Positions 26,884 through 61,302 of a stretch of DNA of 64,000 nt are shown piece by piece. How positions within the stretch are numbered: the first letter of the stretch is position 1; the number at the start of each line of letters is the position of its first letter. A program made the position numbers and the translations under genes. The notes under the pieces are model-generated. The model was not told where the DNA came from. It did no database searches and worked only from the letters and a program-made list of their open reading frames with translations. Origin of the DNA: Haliclona indistincta (lineage: Eukaryota > Porifera > Demospongiae > Haplosclerida > Chalinidae); NCBI GenBank assembly GCA_964017065.1, contig OZ024787.1, positions 7,392,996 through 7,456,995 on the forward strand. Reading direction: 5' to 3'.

Positions 26884-29130
26884 CTATATAACAGCTGCAC
26901 CTTCACTTTGATGCTGTACACATAGCATCAATGACAGTGATGAACTTACTGAGCCAGGTGGTGAAGTGGTGCACTTCTCTTGGTTGAGTAAGAGATCAGA
27001 TGGTGTACAATTAGCTTGCCTAAGTTTGTCATACTGTAAAAGACAGCTATAATTACTGCTCTTAAAAAAATTATGCTGACCACAGAATCGATTTCTTTCC
27101 CAGCAAAAGCATGCTTGTGCAACGTATTTGTGAGTGGAATAGCAGTGGAGTGTCGGACTTGTGGTTTCTGATTTAGTAAGGAGTCAATAGTGTCTGGCTC
27201 TGAGTCAGTGCGGGTTGATTCTGATCAGAGTACAATAATGGTGTGTTGTAACAATAATATTGATTACCCACTTGAGCTGGTCCTGTAGCAGCAATGAAAA
27301 TACTCGCGGTTGAAGTAGATGAAGACCAAAATTATGACAATGACGGCAGTAAATACTACTATACCAGTTAAGCTGACTGCTATTGAAGATAGAGTAGTTA
27401 TGGTGTCGACTGTTTGAACATAGATAAGTGACCTCATGATAAACCAACTTGTGTGCTTACATGATGAATTGGGTACCATAGTAGGAGTGACTTTGATGCT
27501 GATACTAGATGAGTCTGCTATACCGACTACTTCATAAACAAGCAACATAATTTGGACCTGCTTTGACTGAACAATATACCATCATACCTGAGCTAAGTGG
27601 AGTGGATGTTGACAAGGTGTTTTGACTAGGGACGGTTGCTGGTACGATTGTTATCAAGCCATCATGCACGTAAGCAGGACCCATGTTGAAAAGGAACTCC
27701 TCATACTGGTTATACACTCTCACAAGATATTCTCCAGTAGATAAGTCAGTAAAGTTGACAGATCCCTTTTTAAAACCTGACTCCTTCAGTTGTTTGATCC
27801 TTGTATTTTGGTTTACATGTACTAATGCTGCAACTCCTCGAACAGGTGAATTGATGGAGTACGTGCACTCCACTGATATACTGGCGAGATAAGAGTACAC
27901 AGCACAGCTTTGAACATCGTATGAATCTGCAGGTACACATAAAATAAATACATACAAATCAGTAACTTACTGAAAGGGACAGTCTTCATCTCAACTTTTC
28001 TATCTCCAACACCGATGTTAATGTCACACGCATAACGATGATTCTTCTCAACATAGATTGTGTAGTTCACTAGACCAGGTTGTGAAATAGCCACAGTAGT
28101 GTGTGGGGTCTTGTTTGAGCTGTTTGTCATTCGGTAAGTCACAGATGACAATTCTTGATCAGGACAGATGGTAAAGCTCCGCTAAAAAATAACATGAGTT
28201 ATTCATGTATTTTGAAATCTTTTAACTTGCCGGTTGTATATCAATCACAAAACTAACAGCTCGATGAGAATAATTGTAGTAGGCTACCACAGGCTGAGAC
28301 ACATTGACAAAGTGATAGTAATCTATAAATTTTGTTTAAGATATTATAATATGGTGTATAAAGTATAAAATACTCACCTCCTGGTGTTCTCTGCACAACG
28401 ACTACACCATGACCAAGCCGTTCTGATGAGAGTGCAGTCACATTAGCTTTGTAGAACTGACAAAATTGGAGATCATCCACTGGTAGAGGATACTGAGTGT
28501 TGGTGGTAGTGTCACTGATGATCACATCACCAGTGTTGTTGTTCACTACAGTCGCTATGTAAGAGAGATCACTGAGTACACCAGCAGTTACTGGAGGGTC
28601 CCATAGTAGAGTGTTGAATGAAGGATTGAATCTGACATTAGTGACTCGCATTGTACCAATACCTGTATGATAGCAATATGAGATAACTAGTCTACTAGTA
28701 TTGTTCACAACTCACCAGAGAGAACAGTCAAGGTTGCATTGTTACTAGTCACTTCACCAGGATACAATACACAGTGTACAGTAGTGCCATTGTTCTCTAT
28801 CGTTGCTGGTACAGTGAGAGAGGACTGTATCGTACCTGAAGCTGTCACTGTAGTGGTATGAAAAATGGCTCGATCTGTGATTCTGATGTCAGTAGCAAAT
28901 AAATCATCAACTTTCCACGCAATGATATCAGCACCAATGGCAGCACAGTGGAACTGAGTATTCTCTCCAATCAGTGCACTTACTGACACAGGACCCTCTG
29001 TGATAGCTACAAAATGAAACATAATGTAAATAGCATAAAGAAGCATTGTTTTCAACATACTGGCAGCACTAGCAGTTGTGATCAAGATAATCAAAATACA
29101 AACTTGCTTCTGACAGACAAAGAACGTCAT
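26884..29130 (-). CDS. Type I Ig/FN3 single-pass receptor, copy 1 (10 exons)
   Basis: Exons on minus: 29130-29061 (signal peptide MTFFVCQKQ...ILIILITTASA), 29006-28716 (Ig domain, Cys at FHCAA and VHCVL), 28662-28378 (FN3, LLWDPPVTAG), 28322-28231, 28181-27971, 27926-27588 (further beta-sandwich domains with many N-glycosylation sites), 27514-27461, 27409-27272 (TM, SLTGIVVFTAVIVIILVFIY), 27220-27081 and 27033-26884 (cytoplasmic). The total is 1770 nt, 589 aa, in frame. The intron after 28231 uses a GC donor; the donor at 27271 is GTGGGT. The tail contains SVYDKL, which fits the ITIM consensus across the last splice junction. It is a close paralogue of 40960-43562. Function is unknown; the layout suggests a cell-surface recognition receptor. 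Confidence 0.8.
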
Positions 29131-30577
29131 TTTAGCAGATTGCCAGGATAAGTTCTGGATCAGAGAAGCAACGTAACAACAGTCACATAGTACTTGAACT
29201 ATAAAGCTCTCATGAAATGGTATTTTCGTGCGTGCCAATCTGAAGCTGCAAAGGCGGGGCTCGTGATGTAATAACGTGGGCGGGCTGATCCGTTCCACGT
29301 GTGACAAGGTGTGCCTTATCAGAATCCATTCGTTTCTCCATGGTCGTTCCTCTTGATCATTTTTACCCGTGCGCACTATGCGCCAGGGTTATGCGTTTGT
29401 GTCCGTCTATATGTGTGTGTCGTCAAAAAACACGATTGTTTACTTCTCACCGTTCGAAATTCGCCACAAAAACGCAATTTGCTGCCTGTTTACTGAATTT
29501 ATAGTCCTGCGAAGACCTTTACAGCGTCCTGAGAGTCTTGATCGAGCGGCCAACGATGGCTTTCTATGGCCTTCTAAGAACAATATAAGGCAGAAGAGGT
29601 TGGATGATAAACGTGTCCAGGCATGAGGCTACACGACGAAGCTGTGAAACACCAGAGCAGCGTCGTCAGAAGAGACTGCTAGACTTGTCAACCCGTCAGG
29701 CAGATCGAATTGCCTCTGAAACACCAGAGCAGCATCACTAGAAGATATTGCTGGACAAGTCGGCACGTCAGAAAGACATGCCTCTGAAGCACCAGAGCAG
29801 CGTCAGAAGAGACTGCTAGACTTGTCAACCCGTCAGGCAGATCATGATCAGAATAGATAATAAGCGTGCATGAACAATTAAGTCTACACATCTGACTTCT
29901 TCAAACACTATTGTGTATATACTAAACAAATACATGCATGAGTCAGCGCACAGGTATGTGTTCCATTGAACTCTAGTTGTCCATGCAATATTGCTTAGTC
30001 TCTCTCACCATATGCATTTTTACAACATATGAAATTTCTTTATAGTTTGCTCAAAGTCACAGATGCTGTAGGGAGCTGCAATGCATGAGGTGATTGAATA
30101 TAGGTAGACTGAGCTACATCATTGTATAGTGTACCGTATTGCTGGCAATATTTGTGAATCCAAAATCGCTGGTTTTTGTTTGTGGGAATAAAGTTTACAT
30201 CTCCCTTTTGTGTATAATGTATCCTTCTCTCTATCCCTCCTTTCTTTCTCCCTTTGTCATCTCTTAGGTGTTTGTTACAGCCCGCATCAAGCAGTATTTG
30301 TGTGTTGCTCTCTCTAAGAACGGCGGCGTATCCAGCGTACCTGAAGTATTTGAGCTGTCACTGCCACTCCTTAATCTGTTCTCATCCTTTAAAACTCACC
30401 TGAAGATGCAGTATGTCAGATGTGTATTGCTATTCACAAAACAAAATGAAAATTTTCAATATGATCATGATCGGACATACATACGTAAAGCTAGTGTATC
30501 ATCACATGCAGATTTTAGATAAGATTTTTGATTACATCATCAAATTTTTACTTCACGTGAGTTTTTCTCTCTAACTG
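29131..30577. other. Intergenic region between type I copy 1 and type II copy 1
   Basis: 29131-29345 and 29985-30560 are homologous to 48809-49035 and 49045-49690, showing that a unit including both neighbouring genes was duplicated. Between them, 29360-29870 is absent from the other copy and holds a plus-strand coding remnant (separate entry). Confidence 0.6.
29540..29850 (+). pseudogene. Remnant of ETPEQ-repeat (STPR-like) protein
   Basis: Three repeats begin with the codons for ETPEQ or a variant, at 29646, 29718 and 29786 (spacing 72 and 68 nt). A related stretch (IRQKRLDDKRVQA) precedes them. The first repeat reads ETPEQRRQKRLLDLSTRQAD and continues RIAS. This 23-24-residue Arg-rich pattern resembles STPR-type repeats, which occur in DNA-binding proteins and in proteins linked to mobile elements. 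A stop codon and a frame change break it, so it is a dead fragment. Confidence 0.45.
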
Positions 30578-33500
30578 TTAAACTACAGTATTCAATCCAC
30601 TTGAGTATGCCTCACAGTCTTTTAGTTTAAATCTCTCATAAGCAGGATTGTCATGAGTAGTTAGTTGTGATGGTGGAAGTTGAGGAGGACCTGAGGGTTC
30701 AACGGTTTCTACAGTTTTCAATCCATTTGAGTATGCCTCACAGTCTTTTAGTTCAAATCTCTCATAAGCAGGATTGTCATGAGTAGTTAGTTGTGATGGT
30801 GGAAGTTGAGGAGGACTTGAGGGTTCAATGTAGTCATAAATATGTTCCTCTTCTCTGCTAGTCTTCTTAAAATGCTTACGATATAATACAGCTGACAGTA
30901 TAGCTGGAATTACAGTGAACAAGATAATTCCAATTATTGCTCCAGCTGTACGAAGATAAATAAATTAGCTATTACAAATTTACAGGGACAACTTCAGACA
31001 AACCAGCACATGATTTTTTGATGATGTGCACTGCACATCCCTCAGTGGACATTAGCTGGCTTTAACTTACCAGTTATAAATCCGACATAGCTAATTTTAT
31101 CAGCTGTGAATACTCCTGTACAGTAAGTAAAATGCATATGAAATCATTTAGCTTGGATAATAAATTAGACCATACTGCAAGTAATTCTGCAATTTGATCG
31201 GTCAGCCAGAGGTGGTCTAAGTTAAGTAGACCACCGCTGAGTTTACTTAAGGTTTTTACTCATTTCACCCGAGTACGTCACGTGCGCAAGTCGCCTTTGG
31301 CGGCTTATTTTATGGTTCCATTCTTATTCTTATGTTATGTTGTAGGAAAACGCAGTCCGATGAAGTAATTGACGGTTGTAAAAGGTATAGGATTCTATTT
31401 TCAGTTGTACGTCGTCACAGCAAGCCGCTGATGTAGGGATACTTGGAACTTTTACTCTTGCAAGCATTATTTTTTCATTATTCCATCTTGTTCCATTTCT
31501 TTTTCAAGTGTCATCCCTTCACTTTTAAGTTTTTTATTAAAACTTTTTTACTTTACTTTACTAATACTAATACCAAAATGGAATCTGGCTACTAAACCAA
31601 TACTAATCAATTTTATTTCATTGTCACAGAAGGATATACCAAAGCGACTTGTAAAAACCGCTAGTAAAAATAACAGGTAAAAATTAATTGAGTTATGCAC
31701 AACATGATAACTTACCAGAAAGTTCAGAAAAGTTATTAGTGAAGGGCGCTTTGACTTTAACCCGGAAAGGCTCCTGAGGAATACAGGAATCAGTTCTATT
31801 AATCACAAAATTTAGTGTCTGGTTGTCGAGTTCTGCTGTGTAGCTTCGATTTTCGCAGTTGACTTGAGCAGGTTCAAATTTCACAGTGACGTTGATTGTG
31901 TCAATAAATTTAGATAAAATTATATCATCTGGTAGACTACTGTAAAGCATCAAATTTCTATTTTCCATTTGACTTATTACTGGGCGCTTTAGCTTGTCCA
32001 CTGTACGAAGAGAAAAAGAAAGTACTTAATAATATGCAAAAGAAAAACCTAAAAGTGTCTGGATGAATCACAGCCATCCCTATGTTATTGCCTAGTGCCA
32101 ATGACAATACAACAAACAAACAATACAAACATTTTGGTTATCTCCCTTTTAGAAGGAGCTATATTGTACATATTAAACAAGCTGTGACGCTCCTTCACAC
32201 TCTGGTAGTAAGTCACACACTACTAAGGAATGAAACTAGGCAGCTGAAAAACCAGCTCAATTAAAACAGAATTGTTTAGATAACACAATTCTCTCACTGT
32301 TTCATTATACCTTGTCCTGAAAACTCATAAACATGCAAGCTATGCAAAATGTTTATAATTTTGTTTATCATAAACAAGCAAGAAGACTTTACCCCAAAGT
32401 CATAGAAACAGTGATGGAAGGACGTGGATGCTGCATGTTAAATCAGGCATGCATGAAACGGAGTCTGAGCATACTGCTCCATGAAATAGCAATCAATTCA
32501 CGTAGCAGCTATCATTCAGTGGCGTATCCAGGATTTGGAGTAGGAGGGTGCTTAATTGTATACATGTATTCATATAAACCACACCCATTATTTTTGACCA
32601 CGCTCAAATATTCATTAGGGAGGCACTGTTGACGGTAGTGCCTCCCTATGTAGGGTCTAACGAGAAAAAAGATGGCGGCTACATACAACGTATTAGCGTT
32701 CAAACGCTGATATTTCGCTGGTGATGAATTTTATACGTCAAAAGACACTTAAATCTGCTATCTGGCGTTGCCCCATCATACAGTAGCAAGGAGATTGCTC
32801 GAGATTGTTGCTAAAGTGACGAAACTAAAAACGGTGAAAATCGTGTTTCGTCATCTTCGTTTTCTTCTTCTTTCTTCAACTCGCCTAGCGCCTCTATGCG
32901 AGCAGTGCCGAGACCAAAACACCCACGAACAGTCGTGACATTCTCCTGGCATGTGCCTTTTGAGATTAGTTTTTAGCGAAACGGCGATATAAATTCCGCG
33001 ATTTCTCGATCGTGATCCATTGTCAGCTAAGTGTTAGACGCCATTAATGTGATTGCGCAATACGCACGTGACCAAGCAGTGGTTAGGGCACGTGACCAAG
33101 CACTAGCTTGAGTATCTCCACGCTGTATGGTTCACGGAGAACACATATCTGTATGGAGTCTTCAGTCTTCGAAGAACGGCAAGCTATAGGATCACCATTC
33201 TGCGCTTGCCAGATATAAATTATAACCGCCGTACAATACAGGTCAACAAACTAGTGTGGGCGGGGCTCGTATGCACTGCATGCATACATGCGTAGGCGAG
33301 CTGATGGTATAGCATAACAATTATTTTTTGCTACAAGTTTAAAATAAAGAAAAGCCATCAACAACAAGAAACTAAACAACGGTGGAACAAAGACGGCTCA
33401 GTACGTCCATGATAATTATTTGAACTGCACTTCACTAAAAAGTAAAAAGGACACAAACAAGAAAATTAAAAAGATTTCTATCGAAATCAAAAGGATGTAG

Positions 33501-36500
33501 GGTTGTGAAATCTACCACTGGTCCACAATGTAAACTAACATGGAACAAGCATGGAATGGTAACACAATTGACTTGCTAACAGACCATAGATCCCTACATC
33601 AGTGGCTGTACACAAGCTGAATGCACGTCAGGTGTCAGCAGTCAACAAGTAGGTCAACCACACCAGCCACTGATGTAGGGATCTATGGTCTGTTAGCAAG
33701 TCAATTGTGTTACCATTCCCATGTTAGTTTACATTGCGAACCAGTGGTAGATTTCACAACCCTACATCCTTTTGATTTCGATAGAAATCTTTTTAATTTT
33801 CTTGTTATTATAAATTCAAGCAAGGCTATGCATAATGCAGCTGTTCTCTGAGATAGTATAGTAACACATGCGTTCCTATGGCCAGCAACCTAACAATCAC
33901 CTTACTAAATATGGCAAGCATTAATTATTTCTGCTAAGCATGGTTAATTATTTGTTATGCTTTATTAAACTAGCTACCGAAGGTGCAGATGCCTCAGCTC
34001 GGTGGAATGACATACACAGTAAACTACAGCTATTATACTTTCTGTACAGCAATCATAGTTATGCAATCAGAAGCCAATCAGTGTTGACCACAACTGTAGT
34101 GAAATTCTAACCTATCAGCTTCTAGGTAGTCAACTGTGGATAGCTTTGCCTTTGAAGAACTCCAGATCGTCAGCAACATTCCTACAGCCATTATCAATCG
34201 CGAGTGAGCAAATTGCGCCATAACTCACGAACTATTAAGCTTCGTATAATGTTTTCACATGATTGAAAGCGAGATAATACCATGTTATACTTGCATTGCT
34301 AGTTTCAGAGCTTATAACTTTCAGCGCGCGCTACAAAACCGAACCAGGTGACACAGTAACTCACAAACAGAGCCTTATAACCAAAATCATTACAATTCAT
34401 TTTCAAGCAAACATAAACTTTAGGTACATGTTTCAGCGCTTAGTTTTCAGCGAGCGACAAGAAATCCTGCCAACAGACAGACAGACACAACACGACTACT
34501 GTATGGCCCTTGGCTCCTCCGAAATTGCTGGGCACAAGTTCTTAGGGGGGTGCTTATAAGCACTGAAGGCACCCTTGTATAAACGCTCCTGTCATTCATG
34601 TAGCATCATTCATGCAGTAGGCTAAACAATGCTTCCTTTTTATCACCAGGTTGCTATGTACAGTACCCTCAAGAACTTCTTCCTCAAGAAGGAGGAGGAG
34701 GATCGAGGAGGAGGAGAAGATGAACTGGCACTTCGCGTGGGCGGCGATTTCAGTTTACCGCTTTAGAAACTTCAGCCAGCTTCGCCAAAGGTATTTTCAT
34801 GCTCAGAACAATCGTCTGATCGATCCTAGATGACTGAAACCTCAAGAAACGTTAACTGAACAGCGAAGATCTGCAACGGCTCTCTGAGAGTCACTATCTT
34901 AATTTTCGTCGTCAAGCAAGCAGTCCCGGCGACTTTCATAGACTGCTTACACTACAGATTCACTTAGAAATAGTTAAAATACAGTAGAACTTGTATAACA
35001 GTAGAGATATGTGCGATAACTCATTTTCACACATGCATGAGTAGCCACCATCCGTTAGTTCGAGGTCATCTCTACATATCATTGCCGATCGGCAAAGATA
35101 ATACTACTACATTCTCACCAAAATTTAATTAGCATTGGCCCGTTATAGCAACAAACTAGCTTGATGACACAAAGGTATTGTACACACATGCACATTGTTT
35201 CTTTACCTTCAACAATCCTTCCAACAGTCTTGTTTGTCTCTACCATATTCCCATTCATAATCTTACAGGAAACATTGTTGGATTGACTTTCCATGAAGTT
35301 ATTTATACGCAGTGTACAGCTGATTTGGAATCCTACAGAGTAGTCACAGGTGAGTGTCACTGGATGGTCTTCAATAGAGTCAGTACAGATTTGGGTGGTT
35401 AAAGAAGTGTTGCAAGAATTTGATTCAGATGGTGATTTGATACTCCCTCCAAACACTTCAAACATCACTGTGCGCATTTGAGGTACAGAAGCAGTGCATT
35501 GGAACTCTGCACTATATCCAGCTTTGACTATGGATTTTAGAGGAGCTTCAACAATACTGGTTGACCCAGGACCATCTGTAACAGAGAGCGAAGTCAAAGT
35601 CATGACAGGTATAATTGACGTGCAATACTCACCGTTTGAAGTAATATTTTCAAGAAAGCCTCGTCGCATGACTATCTGGAATTGAAAACTTGGTATTCTA
35701 GATACTGTTACTATACAAACTAGTGACTGAACGAAAGGAGTGAATCTTGATATGTTGAGATTTGTGTTATTAAGTGTGTATTCTGTTGTGCTTGAATTCA
35801 GGATAACATTGTCACCAGTACTGTAACGTACAGTCCATGTGATAGAAAAAAGATCAGGGCGTTCCATAGCTATACATGTAGCTCCATAACTGTGTGGGCA
35901 TTTCGCTGTGTACATTTGTCCCCATGTACCATTCGGAGGGTTATTGATAAATATATCCGTGGGAGTAGAAGGAAATACTGTAGGGAAAATAGACATTTTA
36001 ACAAAGTAAGCTATATTTTTGATTATTCGTTCAATAATTGCATGATAGCGACACGTGAGTTCGCACCTTTCACACAAATTAATAAAGAAAGTGTACTAAT
36101 ACCAAAATGGAATCTGGCTACTAAACCAACACTAATTAACCCTCGGCGCATGCGCGAGGGTTACGGTACTTGCTCTGTCATTCATTCGTTCGTTCACTCA
36201 TTCGTTCGTTCTGTCCATCGAGCTGCAGAGACCATCGCTCACTTCTGAAACTCGGTAAAGGTATGAACAGGCTTAGCACGACAATGGCTTACAATGTGAC
36301 TCGTGGATTTTGCTAAATTGCTTTCGTTCTCGAGTTATGTATGGCTGGCTCACCTTGCATGACAGCCATCTTGAAGCTTTAATAAAAAACTGAAAAGTAT
36401 AGGGATATCAAGTCCAGGTATGATTTGACAACATGATACTTGTTAGTACCGTAATGGATGAGGAAGATACTAACACTGACAACTCATGATGCAGCCGGCA

Positions 36501-48808: not shown

Positions 48809-49701
48809 TTTAGCAGATTGCCAGTACAAGTTCTGGATCAGAGAAGCAACGTAACAACCGTCACATAGTACTTGAACTATAAAGCTCTCGTGAAATGGTT
48901 TTATTGCGCATTTTCGTGCGGGCCAATGTGAAGCTGCAAAGGCGGGGCTCGTGATGTAATAACGTGGGCGGGCTGATCCGTTCCACGTGTGACAAGGTGT
49001 GCCTTATCAGAATCCTCCATGGTCGTTCCTCTTCATCATTCTTGTCCATGAAATATTGCTTAGCCTCTCTCACCTCCTAATTTTTACAACATATGCAATT
49101 TCTTTATAGTTTGCTCAAAGTCACAGATGCTGCAATGCACGAGGTGATTGAATATAGCTAGACTGAGCTACATCATTGTATAGTGTACCATATTGAGGTA
49201 ATATTTGTGGGAATTGTCTTGTGCAGTTTCAATCTAAAATCGCTGGTTTTGCTTGTGGGAATAAAGTTTTACATCTCTCTTTTATGTACATGTATAATGT
49301 ATTTTCTCTCTATCCCTCCTTTCTTTCTCCCTTTGTCATCTCTTAGGTGTTTATTACAGCCATCAAGCAGTATTTGTATGTTGCTCTCTCTAAGAACGGC
49401 GTGTCTAGCATATCTGAAATATTTGAGCTGTCACTGTCTTAGCCTCGCCTCCAGTCCACACCCTTCAGTTAGTGGACTGGAGGCGAGGCTATCACTGTCT
49501 ACGCTCCTTACTCTGTTCTCACCCTCACCTCAAGATGCACAGCAGCAGTACATTTTTGTATGTCACATAATTATGTGTATTGCTAATCAAATCAAAATGA
49601 AAATTTTCAATATGATCATGATCAGTATCATCACAGATTTTAGATAAGATTTTGATCACAACATCAAATTTTTACTTCGGGTGAGTTTTTATCTCTAACT
49701 A
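48809..49701. other. Intergenic region homologous to 29131-30577
   Basis: Sequence upstream of the type I pseudogene and downstream of type II copy 2. It matches the corresponding interval between type I copy 1 and type II copy 1 but lacks the ETPEQ-repeat remnant. It contains a 52-bp hairpin insertion (49440-49491). No gene supported; the 154-codon frame at 49183-49647 is low-complexity. Confidence 0.6.
49440..49491. mobile_element. 52-bp hairpin insertion with 9-bp TSD
   Basis: A perfect 20-bp inverted repeat (TAGCCTCGCCTCC... / ...GGAGGCGAGGCTA) surrounds a 12-nt loop. TCACTGTCT is duplicated on both sides (49431-49439 and 49492-49500). The empty site exists in the paralogous sequence near 30356 (GAGCTGTCACTG). 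Confidence 0.85.
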
Positions 49702-52700
49702 TTAAACTTCCGTATGCACAGTTTTCAATCCATCTGAGTATGCCGCACAGTCTTCTAGTTCAAATGTCTCATAAGCAGGATTGTCATGAGTAGTTAGTCG
49801 TGGTGGTGGAAGTTGAGGAGGACTTGAGGGTTCAGCGTAGTCATAGACATGATTCTCTTGTCTGCTAGTCTTCTTAAAATGCTTACGATATAATACAGCT
49901 GACAGTATAGCTGGAATTACAGTGAACAAGACAATTCCAATTATTGCTCCAGCTGTAGATAAATAAATTAGCTATTACAAATTTACAGTGACAACTTCAG
50001 ACAAACCGGCACATGAATTTTTGATGATATGCACTGCATATCCCTCAGTGGACATTATTAGCTGACTTTGACTTACCAGTTATAAATCCAACATAGCTAA
50101 TTTTATCAGCTGTGAATACTCCTGTACAGATAGTAAAATGCATATGAAAATTATCATTTAGATTGGATAGTAAGAGTACAAGAAATTAAAAAGATTTCTA
50201 TCGAAATCAAAAGGATGTAGTGATGAAGAAATCTACCACTGGTTCACAATGTAAACCAACAAGGAACAAGCATAGAATGGTAACACGATTGACTTGCTAA
50301 CAGACCATAGATCCCTACATCAGTGGCTGCTATGGCCAGACTATAGCTAGTTAAGCTATTTACTGTTGACTGACACTTTGAATAGAATTCAGCTTGTGAC
50401 AAAATATTGATCTTATGTACAGCCACTGATGTAGGGATCTATGGTCTGTTAGCAAGTCAATCGTGTTACCATTCTATGCTTGTTCCTTGTTGGTTTACAT
50501 TGTGAACCAGTGGTAGATTTCTTCATCACTACATCCTTTTGATTTCGATAGAAATCTTTTTAATTTCTTGTTTGTGTCCTTTTTTCTTTTTAGTGAAGTG
50601 CAGTTCAATAGCATGCATGTACGGAGAAGTCTTTGTTTCCACCATTAGTTTAGTATTCCTGTTGTTGATGGCTTTTCTTAAACTTGTAGCTAAAATTGTT
50701 AAGCTGTACGTATATCAGGTCTGCCTAGTCGCCTAAGCATGCATGCAGTGCATACGAGCCCCGCCCACACTTGTTTGTAGACCTACAGTGTCCTACACGG
50801 CGGTTATATATAATGCAAGTGCAGAATGGCGATCCTACACGAGCTTAACGTTCTTCGAAGACTCCAGACAAATGCCGGGTGTGTGTTAGCCGTGATAGTG
50901 ATCCACACGGCGCAGCGATACTTTAGCTGCTAGGTCACGTGCGCTACCCATTGCTTGGTCACGTGCGTATTGCGCAATCACAATAATGGCGTCTAACACT
51001 AAGCTGACAATGGATCACGATCGAGAAATCGCGAAACTTAGATCGCCGTTACGCTAAAAACAAAGCTCAAAAGGCACATGCCAGGAGAATTTCACGACTG
51101 TTCGTGGATGTTTTGGTCTCGGCACTGCTCGCGTAAAGGCGCTAGGCGAGTGGAAGGAAGGAAGGAAGGAAGGAAGGAAGGAAGGAAGGAAGGAAGGAAG
51201 GAAGGAAGGAAGGAAGGAAGGAAGGAAGGAAGGAAGGAAGGAAGGAAGGAAGGAAGGAAGGAAGGAAGGAAGGAAGGAAGGAAGGAAGGAAGGAAGGAAG
51301 GAAGGAAGGAAGGAAGGAAGGAAGGAAGGAAGGAAGGAAGGAAGGAAGGAAGGAAGGAAGGAAGGAAGGAAGGAAGGAAGGAAGGAAGGAAGGAAGGAAG
51401 GAAGGAAGGAAGGAAGGAAGGAAGGAAGGAAGGAAGGAAGGAAGGAAGGAAGGAAGGAAGGAAGGAAGGAAGGAAGGAAGGAAGGAAGGAAGGAAGGAAG
51501 GAAGGAAGGAAGGAAGGAAGGAAGGAAGGAAGGAAGGAAGGAAGGAAGGAAGGAAGGAAGGAAGGAAGGAAGGAAGGAAGGAAGGAAGGAAGGAAGGAAG
51601 GAAGGAAGGAAGGAAGGAAGGAAGGAAGGAAGGAAGGAAGGAAGGAAGGAAGGAAGGAAGGAAGGAAGGAAGGAAGGAAGGAAGGAAGGAAGGAAGGAAG
51701 GAAGGAAGGAAGGAAGGAAGGAAGGAAGGAAGGAAGGAAGGAAGGAAGGAAGGAAGGAAGGAAGGAAGGAAGGAAGGAAGGAAGGAAGGAAGGAAGGAAG
51801 GAAGGAAGGAAGGAAGGAAGGAAGGAAGGAAGGAAGGAAGGAAGGAAGGAAGGAAGGAAGGAAGGAAGGAAGGAAGGAAGGAAGGAAGGAAGGAAGGAAG
51901 GAAGGAAGGAAGGAAGGAAGGAAGGAAGGAAGGAAGGAAGGAAGGAAGGAAGGAAGGAAGGAAGGAAGGAAGGAAGGAAGGAAGGAAGGAAGGAAGGAAG
52001 GAAGGAAGGAAGGAAGGAAGGAAGGAAGGAAGGAAGGAAGGAAGGAAGGAAGGAAGGAAGGAAGGAAGGAAGGAAGGAAGGAAGGAAGGAAGGAAGGAAG
52101 GAAGGAAGGAAGGAAGGAAGGAAGGAAGGAAGGAAGGAAGGAAGGAAGGAAGGAAGGAAGGAAGGAAGGAAGGAAGGAAGGAAGGAAGGAAGGAAGGAAG
52201 GAAGGAAGGAAGGAAGGAAGGAAGGAAGGAAGGAAGGAAGGAAGGAAGGAAGGAAGGAAGGAAGGAAGGAAGGAAGGAAGGAAGGAAGGAAGGAAGGAAG
52301 GAAGGAAGGAAGGAAGGAAGGAAGGAAGGAAGGAAGGAAGGAAGGAAGGAAGGAAGGAAGGAAGGAAGGAAGGAAGGAAGGAAGGAAGGAAGGAAGGAAG
52401 GAAGGAAGAAAGAAAGAAAGCAGGAAGCAACAAGCTGGTGAGACCGGTGAACAGTACATTCTGGCTCTCTACGCTCATGCAGCAAAGTGCGGCTACACAG
52501 ACCAGACGCAAAAGGAGAGAGATATCCGTGACCGTCTCGTGGTTGGAATTCGCGACACACAGTTGTCAAGAAGGATGCAACTAGACCCCAGGCTGGCGTT
52601 GGACAACGCGAAGAAGCATGTACTCCAGACAGAGGCTGTGCAAGAGACGCACAAGAAACTCGCTGCGGGTGACAGTCGCGACAATCCTGTGGAGGTTGAC

Positions 52701-55700
52701 TCAGTAACTTGGAAGAAGGACAAGCGTGGAACTCCTCGTGGTGGTGACAGACACGTTCAACGACATCGTCAACGTTCTCAATTTCGGAAGAACGACCGTG
52801 ACCAGAAGTCGTCGCCGTCCGTGTATACGAGATGCGGTAAAGAACCTCACAGCAGAAGAGTCTGTCCAGCTAGAGATGCGGAGTGCCACAAGTGCGGAAA
52901 GCGAGGACACTTCAGTGCACAATGCCGTTCCAAGAACGTCATCTCTAATGTCTCTTTAGAACCCAGTGCTGGACAGGGCAAAGATGTTCCAGTGGATACT
53001 GGTTTCCTCGATTCACTGACTGCTGCTGAGACTTCTGGACCTGCAGTTTGGAATGTGACAGTATATGTTGACAAGCAGGCAGTAACATTTAAAGTAGATA
53101 CTGGTGCAGAGGTTACAGCCATTTCTGATTTCTCCTATAGGCAACTCAAAGGGATCCACCTCAACACTGCAAGCAGAGTGCTGTGTGGACCTGACCATTC
53201 TCGTCTCAAGGTGCTGGGACAGTTCAAGTCGACTCTTGGAGTTAAGGAGAGGACAATACAACAAGACATCTTTGTCGTCAAAGGGCTCAAGAGTAACCTA
53301 CTTGGTCTACCTGCAATTCAAGGAGGAGCCACTGTTAGCATCTCTAAGCTCGATGCTAACAGTGGCTTCTGGCAAATTCCTTTGAGTCCTGAGTCCAGAC
53401 CACTTACTACATTTCTCACACCATTTGGGCGTTACCACTTCAATAAGTTGCCATTTGGTTTGTCTAGTGCCCCTGAGTTGTTCCAGAAACGTATGGGTAA
53501 ATTATTGGAGGGATTGGATGGAGTTGTTTGCTTGATTGACGATGTTCTCATTTTTGCAGCAGATAAGGAGGAACATGATCTCAGACTGAGAGCTGTGCTG
53601 AACAGAATGGCAGAGGCAGGCACTACCCTCAACATGGAAAAGTGTGTGTTTCAGCAGACGGAGTTAAAGTTCCTTGGTCATGTGCTCAACCAAGATGGAG
53701 TGTCTCCGGATCCTGAGAAAACAAGAGCGATCACTTTGATGCCAGCTCCTGATGGAGTTCCTGCTCTAAGACGCTTCATGGGGATGGTTAACCACCTTGG
53801 AAAGTTCTCTCATCGACTATCAGAGCTGACTAAGCCACTACGTGATCTGCTAAGCGCTAAGAACTCATGGAGTTGGGGTCCAGATCAAGATAGAGCATTT
53901 CAAGAAGTAAAAGAGGAGCTCTCTAGACCCACAGTGCTTGCTCTCTATAGTCCTCAGGTCGAGACCAAAGTTTCTGCTGATAGCTCATCATTTGGGCTAG
54001 GAGCCGTATTGCTGCAGCGCCAAACATCAGATTCTGCTTGGAAACCGGTGGCTTACGCCTCTAGAGCTCTTACTGAAACAGAGGGTCGCTATGCTCAAGT
54101 TGAAAAGGAGGCACTGGCATGTACTTGGGCAGCAGAGAAATTTTCGGACTATCTACTTGGTAAACATTTCACAATGGAGACAGACCACAAGCCCTTGGTG
54201 TCCCTTCTCGGAAACAAGAATTTGGACAATTTACCACCCAGGGTGCTACGATTTCGTCTACGTCTATCAAGATTTCTGTACTCTGTAGAACACGTACCAG
54301 GAAAGTCGATCTATACTGCCGATACTCTGTCCCGAAGTCTTGCTCCTTCTACTGACTCAGATGGAGCTGTATCCTCTAGAGATGTTAATTGTTTCATTGA
54401 TGCCATAATAACTTCCCTCCCAGCCTCTACAGATCGGTTGCAGACCTACAAGGCAGCTCAAGAGGAGGATCAGATCTGTAAGCAGATTATTACCTACTGC
54501 AAGCAGGGATGGCCGGAGAAACAAGTTCGTTCTAAGCAGTTCAACTCGTATTGGGGTGCTCGTCACAAGTTCACCATAGTGGACGGCCGATTGCTCCTAT
54601 ATGGCTCATGTATCGTCATTCCATCCTCTCTGCAGGCAGAGACACTTGACAAGATTCATACTGGTCATCTGGGAGTGCAAAAGTGCCTGTCGAGAGCTAA
54701 AGCGTCAGTGGTGGCCAGGCATGACTGGACAGTTGAAAAGAAAAATCCAGGAGTGTCGAGAGTGCAGAGAGCATCTTGTCCAGAGAAAGGAACCACTCAT
54801 TCCCTCAAAGCTACCAGCCTATCCTTGGGAAGAAGTAGGAGCGGATTTATTCCAACTGAGAGGTGTCACCTATCTGCTCGTGGTTGATTATTTTTCCAAG
54901 TTTCCAGAATTGATCAAGCTTACATCCACCACTGCATCAAATGTGATCAACGCACTGAAAGCTGTCTTTGCCAGACATGGCATTCCTTCCTGTTTGAGGA
55001 GCGATAATGGACCTCAATTTGACTGCTCTGAGATGGAAGCATTCGCCACTTCGTATGGATTCAAGCACCGTACAAGCAGTCCAAGATTTCCTCAGAGTAA
55101 TGGACAAGTGGAACGTGCCGTTCAGACCATCAAGAATCTTCTGAGAAAGTCAGATGATCTGTTCCTGTCACTATTGGTCTATCGTTCTACTCCTTTGAGG
55201 TGGTGTGGTAGGAGCCCTGCCGAGCTGTGTATGGGTAGGAAGTTGAGCACGAACCTTCCACAACTTCAGAGTGCCTTGATTCCTGAGTGGACTTACCTTG
55301 ACCAGTATCGTGAAGCAGACAAGATTTACAAGGATCGAGTCAAACAGGACTACGATCGACGACATGGTACTAACGTGCTACCTGAGCTACCGAACCACTC
55401 AGCAGTCTTAGTGGACGATCCAATGGGTCACAACAGAGAGCCTGGGGTTACCATTGATACGGCAGATGCTCCTCGGTCATATGTGGTTAAGACTTCTTCT
55501 GGTGGTATCATCAGACGCAATCGTCACCAGCTCATTACTAACCCCTCATCCTCACCACCTAAGAAGACAGTGAGATTTGCTGACCCACCTGCTGACTGTA
55601 TTGAGCCACCTGCTAATCATGATACTCCTCCTATCTTCAAGCGCAGTCCCATTGTTACAAGATCACGAACGAGAGCTCTCCAAACAAAGGGGGATGTGGA

Positions 55701-58700
55701 GAGTTGACCTCACTCTCTACTGTATTGTATCAATACTACTCTACATTGTTAATAATACGAGCCTTGTCGATTGTCACATGCCTACACGTCTCTGATATTG
55801 TTTACTGTAGTTTTGTCATATTGGTATATATAGACACTGCTCATTCTATTTTGTCACTCTTCTTCTCTGGTCCCTCTGTCATAATCCATACTAAGTATTT
55901 GGCTCGAACCTGTTGAACCCTGCGTTACGCTACAAAAACAGTATGTCTGTGATGCCTGCCTTCACTCCACCTGCAGCTGAGAGACCATGCCTGCCTAGAG
56001 GATTAACTAGATCATTGCAGTGGCGACAGGAATGCGGGCTGCAGATGGGAGTACCCAGACAGAGGAGTGTATCATCATCCATCCGAAGACCAGCTGATGA
56101 AATTGGGAGGGCATTTAGCCAGGCACCAGATTCCTTGCAGGAAGCAGCCAACAAGCGAGCTCTATCTTCTTCATCATAAGCATTATAAAGGAGTTGATCA
56201 GCTAGAGCTGCAGCTCTTGAATGGTCCCAAGCCTTTTGAGAGCAGGTAGTCTCGCTAAAGGGGGGGTGGTAAATCCGTGCCTGAGGACCACACTGACACA
56301 GCCTCTTGAACACTGGGAGAGGACAAGGGAAGATCTTGAAGGAAAAAAAGAGAGCGAGCTGAGAAGTTGCATAGACTGAAGATAAAAAAGCAAAATGAGC
56401 CACATATACAGCCAGGCAGACCCCCAAACCACCCGACCTCGCAGGCAAAGAAGCCTTGAGCCATACTGCACTATTGGTGCCCAAGAGGGTGTTGGTCACA
56501 TCACCCTAAACAGACATGAGGACTGAGTCAAACTCCATAAGAGAGGGAGAAGAAAACAAGGAGCCGACCGCAGGAAGTACATTAGCTTTGGAATTGCAAA
56601 GGAAGATCGAAAGAAGAAGAGCATCGTGAGCTGCAAGATGACAGAGGTGATTACCCATTCCCTGGAGGGCTTCGACTTTATCCATAATAGCAGCAGACGT
56701 ACAGATCTCATCACCCAAGGGAGAGCCCAAAAGAGATGCTTGAGATGGAGGAAGGAGCTGAGCACCAGGCAAATGAGAGAGGAGCAGAGACAAGGTGGAG
56801 TCACTGGCAGAAATTATTTCCAACTTGGAATTGTTTAAAATGAGGCCCTGAGATTCGGCACCTTTGATCAGCTCCAGATCTGACAAGATGCAGTCAAGGT
56901 TTCCCCCAAATGGTCACATCATCAAGGTACAGGATGCACAGGTCAGAACTAAGTGACCGAGATGGTATAATGTGAGACAAAACAGGAGAGGGCCCAGAGG
57001 GTCCTTCTGCTCAGCAGATAGAATTTGGTGTTCGCCCCAGAAGAGGCAAGAAAAAGATGAGTAGGCAGAATGGGCAAGATTGTAAATTTCCGGAGCAAGT
57101 TTACTCACAGCTTCCAGCATCCTATCCCTGTGAACAGAGTTAAACGCGTTCTTGAAATCAAGTTTTACTAGTGCATCTGATAGGGGCATTACAGAGAGGA
57201 ACAGCCTCGCTGCAGCAGCCTCTGCACCACCCCTAACACCATAACTCAGCTGTCTGGGGCTAAGAAGTCTAGACTTTATTTTACTAATACTAATACCAAA
57301 ATGGAATCTGGCTACTAAAACAACACTAATTCATTTCATTGTCACAGAATGCTATCATTCATGTAGCATCATTCATGCAGTAGGCTAAACATTGCTTCCA
57401 TAATTTTTATCACAATGAGGTTGCTAGGGACAGTGCCCTCAAGAACTATATCCACAAAATAAATATGCCTCTATGATATTTAGGAAGTACCAAAGCAACT
57501 TGTAAAAACCGCTTGTGAATATAACAGGTAAACTTGAGTTATGCACAAACATGATAACTTACCAATTGGATCAGAAAGTTCAGAAAAGTTATTAGTGAAG
57601 GGCGCTTTGACTTTAACCTGGAAGGATTCCTGAGGAATGCAGGAATCGGTTATACTAATCACAAAATTTAGTGTCTGGTTGTTGAGTTCTGCTGTGTAGC
57701 TTCGATTTTCACAGTTGACTTGAGCAGGTTCAAATTTCACAGTGACGTTGATTGTGTCAATAAATTTAGATAAAATTATATCGTCTGGTAGACTACTGTA
57801 AAGAATCAAATTTCCATTTTCCATTTTATTTATTACTGGGCGCTTTAGCTTGTCCACTGTATGAGGAGAAAAAAGAAAGTACTTAACAACAGTGTGCATA
57901 TAAGGTAATAATATGCAAAACTAAAGCCTAAAAGTGTAGAGGTGAATCATAGCCATCCATGTTATTGCCTAGCACCAATGACAATAAAACAAACAAACAA
58001 GACAAACATTTTGGTTATCTCCCTTTTAGAAAGAGTTAATATACATATTAAACAAGCTGTGACACTCCTTCACACTCTGGTAGTAAGTCACACACTACCA
58101 AGGAATGAAACTAGGCAGCTGAAAAACTACCTCAATTAAAACAGAATTGTTTAGATAACACAATTCACTCACTGTTTCATTATACCTTGTCCTGAAAACT
58201 CATAAACATGCAAAGCTGTGGAAAATGTTTATAATTTAGATTATTATAAACATGCAATAGTACAAGCCTGAACTAGTGAAAAATGGGACAAATCTAGTGT
58301 GACAGGAGCACATACAACTACTGTCACACTAGATTTGTCCCATTCTTCACTAGTTCAGGCTTTACCCTGGCCTGTTTATTCATGGATACTCTATCTATCA
58401 CAAATCTGTTTGTCTGTCAGAAACTTCCCCTGATTAGCCACACTCCATGCATGGCTCTTGTTATAGCCATGTAGCATATGGAGTTCAGAATGCACTATAA
58501 ATACTGCTACATTACCAAATTATCACCAAAATTTAATTAGCATTGGCCCATTATAGCAACAAACTAGCTTGATGACACAGAGGTATTTGTACACACATGC
58601 ACATTGTTTCTTTACCTTCAACAATCCTTCCAACAGTCTTGCTTGTCTCTATCATATTCCCATTCATAATCTTACAGGAAATATTGTTGGATTGACTTTC

Positions 58701-61302
58701 CATGAAGTTGTCTATACGCAGTGTACAGTTGATTTGGAATGCTACTGAGTAGTCACAGGTGAGTATTACTGGATGGTCTTCAATAGAGTCAGTACAGATT
58801 TGGGTGGTTAAAGAAGTGTTGCAAGAATTTGATTCAGATGATGAATTGATACTCCCTCCAAACACTTCAAACATCACTGTGCGCAATTGAGGTACAGAAG
58901 CAATGCATTGGAACTCAGCACTATATCCAGCTTTGACTATGGATTTTAGAGGAGCTTCAACAATACTGGTTGGCCCAGGACCATCTGTAACAGATAGTGA
59001 AGTCAAAGTCATGACAGTGTATAATTGATGTTCAATACTCACCTTTTGAAACAATATTTTCAAGAAAGCCTCGTTGCATGACTGTCTGGAATTGAAAACT
59101 TGGTATTCCAGTTACTGTTACTGTACAAACTAGTGACTGAACTAAAGGAGTGAATCTTGATATGATGAGATTAGTGCTATTAAGTGTGTATTCTGTTGTG
59201 CTTGAATTCAGGACAACATTGCCACCAGTACTGTAAAGTACAGTCCAGGTGATAGAATAAAGATCAAGGCGTTCCATAGCTAGAGCTCCAAAACTGTGTG
59301 GGCATTTCGCTGTGTACATTTGTCCCCATGTAGCACTCAGAGGGTTGTTGACAAATATATCCAAAGGAAATTCTGTTGGAAAAATGCATTAATTTTAACG
59401 AAGTAAGCTATATTTTTGATTTTCATGTAATAATTGCATGATAGCGACACGTGAGTGGCAGAATTGGCTAATAATTATTAAAAAAACCAGGCTTTATTTC
59501 GGGAAAACAATGCAACTGTATGTGAAGCACAAGAAGGCAATGTGTCTGTAGTATTATTCTCGTCTTTCTCAAGTTGCCGTTATCGCACATAGTGTACCTA
59601 ACGCTCGCCAGCAGGCGTCATCCGTCCTGCTAATGCTGTTTATGCAACAGCGCTCAGACTTGGAATAATAAGGGGAGACCACTTGGTGACTGTGCAACAC
59701 ACACAAGAATCCATAACTAAAAGTATTGCAAGCAAGAAATTATAAACCAACAAGGAACAAGCATGGAATGGTAACACGATAGACTTGCTAACAGACCATA
59801 GATACCTACACCAGTGGCTATACATAAGATTAATATTTTTTTCATAAGCTGAATTCAATTCAATGCACGTCAGGTGTCAGTCAACAGCAACCAGCTGAAT
59901 TAGCTATAGTCAGCCACAGCAGCCACTGATGTAGGGATCTATGGTATTTGCTAACATACCATAGATCCCTACATCAGTTACATCTGATTCAGTCAATCGT
60001 GTTACCATTCCATGCTTGTTCCTTGTTGGTTTACATTGTGGACCACTGGTAGATTTGTACATCCTTTGATTTCGATAGAAATCTTTTTAATTTTCTATAT
60101 TTTGAAATTGCTGGGATGACCTGTCACGAACAACATAGTGAAAGCCTTGTCAGTATTGTTAGCACCTGTTAGGCTCCAGTGGCACAGGATGACCCCTCAA
60201 GCTATGGTATTTGTTGATGCTTATCTTGAAGACATGGTTCATTTGCCAGATGAATGGTAAACTACATTTTGGTAAACTACATATTAAACAAGTCTCTTCA
60301 CACTCTAGTCACACACTACTAAGGAATGAAACTACGTAGGCAGCTGAAAAACCACCCTCAATTAAAACAGAATTGTTTAGATAACACAATTCACTCACTG
60401 TTTCATTATACCTTGTCCTGAAAACTCATAAACATGCAAAGCTGTATATACTTTTGCTTATCATAAACATGCAATAGTACAAACACACTGCTTAATAGTG
60501 AACTAGCCAAGACTTCAAGAGTACTGTCAATAAAAATGATTATGTAAACAAGAATAGCAGAGATCAGGAAGAGGGCATTCCCCTGGTCACTAAAAATAGT
60601 ACTATGAAAACACTACAGCTGCTGTAACCCAATCTCTTGGTAACTATTTAGATGCCAGATGGTGTGTTAGTACTTAGACTCCAGGAAATGTTTCTGCACA
60701 CCAAATTCATAGAAACAGTACTAATGATGGAAGTGGATGCTGCATGTTAAATCAGGCATGCATGCAATGGACTCTGAGCATACTGCTCCATGGAATAGCA
60801 ATCATATAGCAACTATCACTCATGTAGTAGGCTTCCCTTTAATGCGGGTAATTTTTATCACCAGGTTGCTAGGGACAGCACCCTCAAGAACTATATCCAC
60901 AAATTAATATGATATTCATTGTCACAGAAGGAAATACCAAAGCAACTTGTAAAACTGCTCGTAAAAATAACAGGTAAACTTGAGTTATGCACAAACACGA
61001 TAACTTACCAATTGGATCAGAAAGTTCAGAAAAGTTATTAGAGAAGGGCGCTTTGACTTTAACCCGGAAAGACTCCTGAGGAATGCAGGAATCAGTTCTA
61101 TTAATCACAAAATTTAGTGTCTGGTTGTTGAGTTCTGCTGTGTAGCTTCGATTTTCACAGTTGACTTGAGCAGGTTCAAATTTCACAGTGACGTTGATTG
61201 TGTCAATAAATTTAGATAAAATTATATCGTCTGGTAGACTACTGTAAAGCATCAAATTTCCATTTTCCATTTCACTTATTACTGGGCGCTTTAGCTTGTC
61301 CA
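49702..61302 (-). CDS. Type II multi-Ig receptor, copy 2 (5' end outside window)
   Basis: Exons on minus: 61302-61009 (FN3-like), 59372-59043 (Ig-a), 58984-58616 (Ig-b), 57856-57563 (FN3-like), 50121-50077 (stalk) and 49952-49702 (TM plus tail). All junctions are phase 1, and the lengths 294, 330, 369, 294, 45 and 251 keep one frame to the stop. The tail, EENHVYDYAEP-like with RQENHVYDYAEP, one proline-rich stretch and one NPAYETF, is a single-copy version of the duplicated tail in copy 1. A 7.4-kb intron between the stalk and the last FN3 exon contains the GGAA microsatellite, a Ty3 element and a LINE fragment; whether it is still spliced is unknown. Leader and further cassettes lie beyond the window or are missing. 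Confidence 0.65.
50179..50570. repeat. Foldback element, copy 2
   Basis: Same family as 33458-33804; arms of about 160 bp with AGATTTCTATCGAAATC ends and the CACTGATGTAGGGATCTATG box. It lies in the giant intron of type II copy 2. Confidence 0.8.
50740..51145 (-). repeat. Composite dispersed repeat, copy 2, truncated at microsatellite
   Basis: Reverse-strand relative of 32605-33335 and 61505-62215. It is intact up to the point where the sisters have a short TTCTTCTTTCTTC tract; there it passes into the giant GGAA array and the remaining third is missing. Confidence 0.75.
51152..52420 (+). repeat. 1.27-kb GGAA tetranucleotide microsatellite
   Basis: About 310 uninterrupted GGAA units, degrading to GAAA at the right end (52408-52420). 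It is open in several frames on both strands (KEGR- or FLPS-type polypeptides) simply because of its periodicity. It sits at the position of a short CTT-rich tract in the sister composite repeats, so it probably grew from there. Confidence 0.95.
52421..55707 (+). pseudogene. Damaged Ty3/gypsy retrotransposon gag-pol
   Basis: In order: the end of gag, a zinc-knuckle region (one intact CHKCGKRGHFSAQC; the first knuckle has lost its first Cys), protease (VDTGAEVTAIS, about 53096-53130), reverse transcriptase (SKLDANSGFWQIPL, then LPFGLSSAPELFQKR, and catalytic LIDDVLIF), RNase H (SADSSSFGLGAVLLQ) and integrase (HTGHLGVQKC, SDNGPQFDC, NGQVERAVQTIKN). Defects: most of gag is missing at the microsatellite, the N-terminal part of RT is deleted at about 53345, and a frame change near 54700 splits the integrase zinc finger. 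It is a dead copy; no 5' LTR was found. Confidence 0.88.
55695..55934 (+). mobile_element. Probable 3' LTR of the Ty3 element
   Basis: It begins TGTGGAGAGTTGACC just after a purine tract (AAACAAAGGGGGA) that fits a polypurine tract. It ends ACGCTACA, giving the usual TG...CA boundaries, 240 bp. A TATATATAG box lies near 55845. The right boundary is where LINE-derived sequence starts. Confidence 0.65.
55935..57280 (-). pseudogene. LINE reverse transcriptase fragment
   Basis: Read on minus from 57270: LSYGVRGGAEAAARLFLSV, then LVKLDFKNAFNSVHRDRML (RT motif), a YLDDV catalytic motif at about 56910-56930, and a C-terminal part with SGAWLNALPISSAGLRMDD followed by a Cys/His cluster (CSPHSCRHCNDLVNPLGRHG). 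Frames shift at least twice. This RT type is common in marine invertebrate genomes. It ends abruptly at the Ty3 LTR, which may have inserted into it. Confidence 0.8.
58265..58361. repeat. Hairpin insertion with 40-bp arms
   Basis: AGCCTGAACTAGTGAA... at 58265-58304 is inverted at 58322-58361 with one mismatch and a 17-nt loop. It lies in a type II intron; the paralogous introns near 32360 and 60480 lack it. Confidence 0.75.
59740..60097. repeat. Foldback element, copy 3 (partly deleted left arm)
   Basis: The right arm is complete to GATTTCGATAGAAATC; the left arm lacks its outer part. The central GATGTAGGGATCTATGGTAT box is itself palindromically duplicated at about 59920-59978. Confidence 0.75.
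60100..61008. other. Type II intron sequence
   Basis: This holds cassette-derived intron sequence (60290-60830) that recurs at 32160-32520, 58025-58230 and 62758-63270. No exon recognised. Confidence 0.6.

What the first reader, a model, noticed from the sequence alone, without database searches (positions are those of the whole stretch)
26884..61302. Alternating cluster of two receptor types: candidate recognition locus
On one strand, type I (Ig-FN3-TM, ITIM-like tail) and type II (multi-Ig cassette-TM, NPxY/proline tail) genes alternate at least twice. They have homologous intergenic regions, near-identical domains, decayed members and length changes in tails. This birth-and-death pattern resembles known invertebrate allorecognition and vertebrate paired-receptor loci. 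I do not know of a described family with these two architectures; novelty is unproven.
Basis: partly seen in the sequence, partly recalled or inferred. Interest (0 to 1): 0.9.

Follow-up and report, generated by a model that had tools for sequence, protein, structure and literature searches.

The report
Sponge ITIM-tailed Ig receptor complex
A sponge chromosome carries a cluster of fast-changing antibody-domain-like cell-surface receptors with the inhibitory signalling tails known from immune cells; the cluster belongs to a family of at least 150 gene copies, which makes it a strong, still untested candidate for self/non-self or microbe recognition.

Summary
Confirmed and extended. The window lies in a 144-Mb genome with silicatein-type exons, so probably a siliceous sponge. 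Its minus strand holds two type II genes (SP-Ig | G | H | F cassettes | TM-tail) and three type I copies (SP | Ig | FN3 | C | D | TM-tail), the left end of a ~214-kb complex of 16 type I copies and 7 type II loci. The usual unit is II – Ib – Ia; seven of eight Ib copies are broken. All six Ia tails found keep two ITIMs. The D exon has at least 150 copies genome-wide, about two thirds in one ~1.1-Mb array. Elsewhere type I genes carry ITIM cassettes (57 matches) or an NPAY/YETV tail (120): one ectodomain family, two tail classes. Two SH2-SH2-PTP genes, the expected ITIM effectors, exist. Outer modules are swapped between copies. Pfam did not recognise the type I sequences scanned. It works like a paired-receptor family; expression, polymorphism and allorecognition are untested. 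Ten literature searches listed no such sponge family.

The parts
41063..43562 (-). I-B (type Ia), model of 9 exons: SP 43562-43490, Ig 43427-43143, FN3 43087-42809, small 42754-42663, C 42612-42402, D 42352-42026, stalk 41977-41897, TM 41842-41714, tail 41334-41063; 582 aa
   Evidence: model, frames; one donor (after C, GC-AG) and the tail acceptor are inferred without transcripts
41063..41334 (-). I-B cytoplasmic tail exon with two ITIMs (LHYTQV, VNYATV)
   Evidence: six such tail exons found in the complex, both motifs in 6 of 6
26884..29388 (-). I-A (type Ib, the only Ib copy with an uninterrupted D exon and a TM match): Ig 29010-28720, FN3 28645-28376, C 28169-27966, D 27924-27625, TM about 27500-27279; no ITIM tail found
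46966..49003 (-). I-C (type Ib) relic: Ig 48688-48392 open, FN3 truncated 48317-48153, C partial 47514-47380, D 47265-46984 with 2 stops, no TM or tail match
44126..44430 (-). signal-peptide-like and partial Ig relic between I-C and I-B (Ig query residues 1-31 only)
30578..40044 (-). II-A: SP-Ig 40044-39717, G 39662-39330, H 39271-38903, (F1 38274-37981, one base extra, left out of the model), G 35977-35633, H 35575-35207, F 32000-31716, TM-tail 30945-30578; 798 aa as modelled; the six introns of the model are phase 1
30583..30828 (-). 126-bp tandem duplication inside the II-A tail (two NPAYERF blocks with proline-rich stretches)
49705..61303 (-). II-B: F 61303-61010, G 59382-59044, H 59012-58614, F 57857-57564, TM-tail 49956-49711; no SP-Ig match upstream, so 5'-truncated or pseudogene
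29977..30363 (-). block between the II-A tail and I-A, homologous to 49042-49436
   Evidence: 83% over 415 columns
49042..49436 (-). the matching block between the II-B tail and I-C

Best explanation
This is one cluster of a large, fast-turning family of single-pass cell-surface recognition receptors of a sponge. Type I proteins place a variable outer Ig-FN3 pair on a more conserved inner D module. In this complex the Ia copies end in a tail with two ITIMs; relatives elsewhere carry repeated ITIM cassettes or a NPAY/TAYETV tail. Proposed working: outer Ig modules bind a ligand (self, allogeneic or microbial), a Src-type kinase phosphorylates the tail tyrosines, ITIM copies recruit tandem-SH2 phosphatases (SHP type) and dampen the response, and copies with the other tail give a different, possibly activating or endocytic, output. 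Type II proteins, with a variable G module, a V-set-like H Ig and NPxY/proline tails, are co-duplicated and may be partners or counter-receptors. Shown from sequence: architecture, clusters, tail classes, module swapping, presence of SHP-type genes. Inferred: expression, phosphorylation, SHP binding, ligand, role of type II.
Confidence: 0.68

Rival explanations
1. Homophilic or heterophilic adhesion proteins of ordinary tissue building. The arrays give adhesive diversity and the ITIM/NPxY tails tune junctions, without a self/non-self role.
For: Ig+FN3 ectodomains and NPxY tails are typical of adhesion proteins (recalled). The D core is nearly invariant in the nine C3/C4 copies aligned and largely shared with diverged ENA copies. 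pN/pS of the type I Ig stays below 1.
Against: At least 150 copies with broken members, swapping of outer domains and two tail classes is more than adhesion families that I recall show; G reaches pN/pS about 1.
Confidence: 0.15
2. Microbe- or symbiont-sensing receptors: the diversity tracks bacteria, not conspecifics.
For: Sponges filter bacteria (recalled) and carry other expanded sensor sets, e.g. 135 NLR domains reported for Amphimedon (PMC9505182, passage). Two tail classes fit threshold setting against microbes.
Against: Nothing here points to a microbial ligand; clustered Ig receptors with ITIMs in Hydractinia and Botryllus are tied to allorecognition (PMC12065747, passages).
Confidence: 0.3
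3. A largely decaying, self-propagating tandem array with few working genes; the motifs are leftovers.
For: Seven of eight Ib copies have broken or partial D exons, several type II loci are partial, an integrase ORF lies inside II-B.
Against: Both ITIMs are kept in 6 of 6 Ia tails found while neighbouring residues change; 56 of 57 ITIM-cassette and 116 of 120 NPAY-tail matches have no stop inside; pN/pS below 1, bootstrap range included, in D, C, H and F.
Confidence: 0.07
4. Ectodomains of receptor tyrosine kinases, as in known sponge Ig-type RTKs (recalled), with kinase exons missed.
For: A type II H exon also occurs at C2:14.376 Mb, about 66 kb from SH2-kinase frames.
Against: No PF07714 match inside C5:7.39-7.65, C3:2.85-3.98 or C4:0.99-1.11 Mb among the matches listed (133 of 1135 candidates scored; the list is cut); in the two models the TM exon leads to a short tail with a stop codon.
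Confidence: 0.02

Closest known systems
Hydractinia allorecognition complex, Alr family (cnidarian)
   Same: Clustered multigene Ig-type receptors with V-set and I-set domains (PMC11999971, passages) and ITIM/ITAM motifs (PMC12065747, passages).
   Different: Alr has 41 members as cited there; here at least 150 D exons. Here an Ig-FN3-C-D ectodomain, two linked gene types in a mostly three-gene repeat, two tail classes. No Alr sequence was compared here.
Botryllus fester co-receptors (FcoR) at the fuhc locus
   Same: Receptors of 520-610 aa with Ig domains and ITIM or hemITAM tails, encoded beside a partner gene of another type (PMC12065747, passages).
   Different: FcoR ectodomain is V-Ig, sushi, two C2-Ig; no sushi match was listed for the models here. 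Polymorphism there is known; here it is not.
Vertebrate paired-receptor clusters (KIR/LILR, NITR, chicken CHIR; recalled)
   Same: Tandem arrays, one ectodomain family with inhibitory ITIM tails and other tails, pseudogenes, domain exchange (recalled).
   Different: Vertebrate ectodomains are Ig only (recalled); the second tail class here is an NPAY/YETV tail rather than a short tail with a charged TM residue (charged-TM forms were not searched for).
Sponge aggregation factors (AF)
   Same: A sponge gene family tied to cell recognition (PMC5450542, passages). That paper reports no enrichment of AF-mediated adhesion genes in Amphimedon grafts.
   Different: AFs are extracellular Calx-beta/Wreath proteins (recalled); these are Ig-type membrane receptors with signalling tails.
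Geodia sponge Ig-type RTK and SAM molecules (recalled)
   Same: Sponge Ig domains with reported polymorphism (recalled).
   Different: No kinase match listed in the arrays; family size and ITIM tails not described for those, as far as I recall.

Membership tests
ITIM-bearing paired Ig receptor family (functional class) | Ig-type ectodomain, signal peptide, single TM | tested here: met
   Models I-B and II-A: hydrophobic N-terminus and one further TM segment; Ig fold matches for the type I Ig half and the H exon, on models of low mean confidence
ITIM-bearing paired Ig receptor family (functional class) | cytoplasmic ITIM(s) | tested here: met
   Two ITIMs in 6 of 6 Ia tails found; 57 ITIM-cassette matches elsewhere; each of the three L031 stretches scanned holds at least one VQYxxV/I
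ITIM-bearing paired Ig receptor family (functional class) | same ectodomain family with two opposite signalling outputs | tested here: inconclusive
   Two tail classes on one ectodomain family; that the NPAY/YETV tail activates is not shown
ITIM-bearing paired Ig receptor family (functional class) | SHP-type tandem-SH2 phosphatase in the genome | tested here: met
   Two SH2-SH2-PTP open frames of 581 and 572 aa on C9; a third, split set on C2:12.786-12.788 Mb
ITIM-bearing paired Ig receptor family (functional class) | phosphorylated ITIM recruits SHP | not testable with these tools
   needs biochemistry
Invertebrate allorecognition locus | extreme allelic and gene-content polymorphism | not testable with these tools
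   one assembly only
Invertebrate allorecognition locus | segregation with fusion/rejection | not testable with these tools
   needs grafting and crosses
Hydractinia Alr family | sequence homology to Alr proteins | not tested
   no Alr sequence was compared
Receptor tyrosine kinase | kinase domain in the gene | tested here: not met
   no PF07714 match listed in the arrays (133 of 1135 candidates scored, list cut); the two modelled tails end in stop codons
Sponge aggregation factor | Calx-beta or Wreath domains | tested here: inconclusive
   no Calx-beta match to the I-B or II-A model in Pfam at E <= 1; Wreath was not tested
Known Pfam Ig or FN3 families | score above the curated cut-off | tested here: not met
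   six sequences scanned; best Ig score is Ig_3 on II-A, 23.1 bits against a cut-off of 30; no type I sequence reaches a cut-off

The most novel reading that the evidence does not exclude
The C5 complex, with the ~1.1-Mb C3 array, is the sponge's own ITIM-based self/non-self receptor system: a paired-receptor repertoire of at least 150 members whose outer Ig modules are reshuffled between copies and whose inhibitory copies signal through SHP. That would carry ITIM-type recognition back to Porifera, deeper than the cnidarian-to-mammal span now stated, and give sponge allorecognition a receptor-side candidate besides the aggregation factors.
Probability: 0.3. Interest if true: 0.95.

Novelty: new variant of a known kind. 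Interest (0 to 1): 0.76.

Why it matters
A 2025 review states that in the three main invertebrate models the candidate allorecognition proteins are unrelated, and that ITIM/ITAM signalling is shared from cnidarians to mammals (PMC12065747, passages); [quoted passage not shown] A sponge family with the anatomy of ITIM paired receptors would extend this signalling logic to Porifera and make it testable in animals that can be grafted. That Pfam did not recognise the type I sequences scanned could explain why domain-count surveys would miss it.

Tried and rejected
Receptor tyrosine kinase ectodomains: disfavoured. Known-family orthology: a single-protein search with I-B gave one partial hit, 97% over 7% of the query; Pfam at E<=1 gave nothing above cut-off in the six sequences scanned; PDB sequence search gave only weak hits, an RPTP FN3 (E 0.022) and TCR V-alpha (E 0.2) for Ig-FN3, nothing meaningful for D. 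Rfam on the window, gathering scores: none. ITAM reading of the YADL...YATV cassette: rejected by eye because the spacing is too long for the recalled ITAM rule. Homogenising of D alone as the explanation: the D core is also largely shared with diverged ENA copies, but the S1 set did not show D under stronger constraint than Ig. Names that Foldseek or VIA-align do not list are not thereby excluded (notes). No silicatein-type serine in three of the five C10 exons read.

Dropped rows: for pN/pS only matches covering at least 75% (S1) or 80% (S2) of the module query were kept, which removes partial copies. S2 kept 15 Ig, 9 FN3, 11 C, 9 D, 6 tails, and for type II 10 G, 10 H, 9 F, 4 SP-Ig and 6 TM-tails; there are 16 D sites in the complex. 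S1 holds nine C3 loci; 9 gave Ig and FN3, 8 gave D (L037 missing), 6 gave C (L034, L037, L039 missing). L029 and L030 hold several genes and the best match per module was taken, so modules of one locus need not be one gene.

Full report
What it lies in. Of five cathepsin-like exons read on its C10, two (L051, L052) carry, by eye, serine where the catalytic cysteine should be and three (L049, L050, L053) carry cysteine. That serine is the mark of silicateins, which I recall only from sponges. I therefore treat it as a siliceous sponge. The species is not established; the genome size brings Amphimedon queenslandica to mind, but that is a recollection.

Anatomy in the window. Frames, splice signals and paralogue comparison give two gene types on the minus strand. 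Type I: signal peptide, Ig, FN3-like, a small exon, C, D, stalk, TM, tail; model I-B has 582 residues. Type II: signal peptide with Ig, then cassettes G, H, F, then TM with tail; model II-A has 798 residues. The six introns of the II-A model are phase 1, so cassettes can be skipped or duplicated without frame loss; I-B has seven phase-1 and one phase-0 intron as modelled, and two of its splice choices are uncertain. Both models have a hydrophobic N-terminus and one TM segment, with 11 and 18 N-glycosylation sequons in the stretches counted.

Beyond the window. Adding C5 up to 7,654,999 (3,300 N in the 262 kb joined) shows a complex from about 27k to 241k in window-based coordinates, minus strand up to about 130k, plus strand from about 197k, with two stretches (about 69-95k and 130-197k) in which no module matched. 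It has 16 type I copies by the D exon, eight Ia (D like I-B) and eight Ib, and seven type II loci, some partial. The order mostly repeats as II - Ib - Ia, with exceptions (two Ia in a row near 106-113k; Ib followed directly by II near 229k). Of the eight Ib copies only I-A has an uninterrupted, whole D exon; one has two stops, five fall into pieces, one is partial. Of six Ib downstream regions read by eye, only I-A shows a TM frame, and in four (b103, b114, b199, b215) the next frame recognised is a signal peptide or Ig of the following gene.

Genome-wide. The D exon query scored 150 of 203 candidates and all 150 match: by my count about 100 on C3:2.85-3.98 Mb, the rest on C3:16.18-16.28, C4:0.99-1.11, C5:7.42-7.61, C6:10.84-10.97, C7:2.08-2.10, C9:5.61, C10:2.945 and one on C1. 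Ig+FN3 queries give 201 and 183 matches, exons counted separately, 150 of 508 and 150 of 386 candidates scored. So at least 150 type I copies, broken ones included; the true number is probably higher. Type II H has 11 close copies (91% or more) and 18 diverged matches (43% or less). Seven sites outside the complex that I read (L040-L046) keep G and H together, and five of them also show the preceding Ig exon (L040, L043-L046). The type II TM-tail query has 63 matches of 70 candidates, several per gene, also on contigs where no H match was listed, e.g. C7:0.92-0.96 Mb, which suggests tail sharing by exon shuffling.

Signalling tails. The I-B tail has LHYTQV and VNYATV. Against the recalled ITIM rule ([SIVL]xYxx[IVL]) two such motifs arise in 1.5% of shuffles of that tail, weak on its own. 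But both motifs recur in all six Ia tail exons found while other residues change; the two remaining Ia copies (65k, 129k) have no TM or tail match. A cassette of the same make, YADLxHSTNPPAPPLPVEPVQYATVK, has 57 matches of 79 candidates, which I group by hand into 32 sites, 29 on C3 and three on C7. A second tail class, DNPAYITM...NTAYETV...VYETVL, has 120 matches of 132 candidates on C3, C4, C6, C7, C9 and C10; TAYETV fits the recalled ITSM rule. In the four loci read (L029-L032) tails of both classes follow type I ectodomains: ITIM in L029 and L031, NPAY in L029, L030 and L032. The type II tail has NPAY and proline-rich blocks and no ITIM.

Effectors. PTP and SH2 searches place two SH2 and one PTP domain in single open frames of 581 and 572 residues, side by side at C9:7,649,661-7,653,885, and a third, split set on C2. 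So SHP-type phosphatases exist in this genome. Many tyrosine kinases exist too, but no match listed lies inside the type I arrays (133 of 1135 candidates scored, list cut).

How it evolves. Modules move between copies. The Ig of the type I copy at 108k is 93-98% identical to seven Ib Igs and 73-77% to the seven other Ia Igs; its FN3 is 92-94% identical to five Ia copies and 82% to I-A. I-B and the copy at 217k, about 175 kb apart and on opposite strands, share Ig, FN3 and C at 96-100%, while the remaining Ia copies (108k included) differ from them at 73-80, 70-72 and 51-57% there; at D the five remaining Ia copies with a whole D are at 78-88% to I-B and 75-83% to the 217k copy. In type II, G is 69-97% identical between ten copies and the next exon H 89-99%. 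Pooled pN/pS with codon bootstrap: G 1.05 (0.71-1.63), SP-Ig 0.96 (four copies, 0.61-1.70), H 0.46 (0.28-0.81), F 0.48 (0.26-0.96), type II TM-tail 0.98 (0.49-2.37); type I Ig 0.64 (0.45-0.94), FN3 0.86 (0.56-1.44), C 0.56 (0.42-0.77), D 0.49 (0.37-0.62), tail 0.83 (0.44-1.83). None exceeds 1 with confidence, and conversion between copies makes such values rough. The pattern fits a fast G against constrained H and F in type II, and less clearly outer against inner modules in type I; in the second set (S1, C3) Ig 0.65, FN3 0.36, C 0.72 and D 0.63 do not fit that order.

Outside this genome. Searching with D profile A1 gives 331 proteins, 120 listed, all from ENA contigs without names. Some are 99-100% identical to the loci that I hold, others down to 52%; as I hold only part of the family, low identity alone does not prove another species, but a recurring consensus with a distinct start (P0057, P0058, P0064, P0068, P0072) on contigs up to 632 kb suggests one. 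For H, 31 proteins were found; P0145 is 63% identical at best to the regions that I hold, and the H search of this genome listed no match between 43% and 91%, so P0145 is probably from another species.

Known or new. Closest in working are the Hydractinia Alr complex and Botryllus FcoR (PMC12065747, passages) and vertebrate paired receptors (recalled). Ten paper searches listed no paper that, by title and start of abstract, describes an ITIM-tailed Ig family in a sponge; Amphimedon and ITIM occur together in three papers, none about such a family by title. I saw passages only of PMC9505182, PMC11999971, PMC12065747, PMC12909245 and PMC5450542, and search listings of the rest; most subscription journals are not held and the AF family paper PMC5400394 was not either, so a description may exist. 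Hence 'new variant of a known kind': a new family, in a phylum where this kind was not seen in my searches, rather than a new kind.

Noticed in passing
105-15017 (-): Five tandem ORFs of 587-608 aa without stops, 84-96% alike at DNA level; the first matches the POT/PTR2 transporter family just over cut-off (27.8 against 27 bits).
   Followed up: partly
51152-52420: A GGAA microsatellite of about 317 units (1,269 bp) inside the II-B intron region.
   Followed up: no
54580-55707 (+) and 56917-57330 (-): Retroelement remains inside II-B: an integrase core (rve) ORF and a reverse-transcriptase-like fragment (by eye).
   Followed up: no
33456-33806, 50178-50571, 62346-62746, 2533-3206: Palindromic (self-inverted) elements, 83-88% arm identity, the first three related to each other; probably non-autonomous transposons.
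   Followed up: no
18202-18745: A 65-bp tandem repeat, 8.4 copies, 96% matches.
   Followed up: no
25294-25908 (+): ORF with a zinc_ribbon_6 match (RCHY1-like, name recalled) next to the left end of the cluster.
   Followed up: no
G000:C9:7649661-7653885: Two SH2-SH2-PTP genes in single open frames side by side, a tandem pair of SHP-type phosphatases.
   Followed up: partly
G000:C7:962225-963097: A type II-like TM-tail with six NPAY-block matches in one open frame, an extreme form of the tail length change seen in II-A.
   Followed up: no
L031:7860-9020: Eight ITIM-cassette matches within 1.2 kb downstream of one C3 type I gene.
   Followed up: partly
G000:C1:16375264-16376664 and G000:C3:2871133-2872533: A type I copy on C1 and one on C3 score identically in two searches, so they look like one sequence present twice: a recent duplicate or an assembly duplicate.
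   Followed up: no
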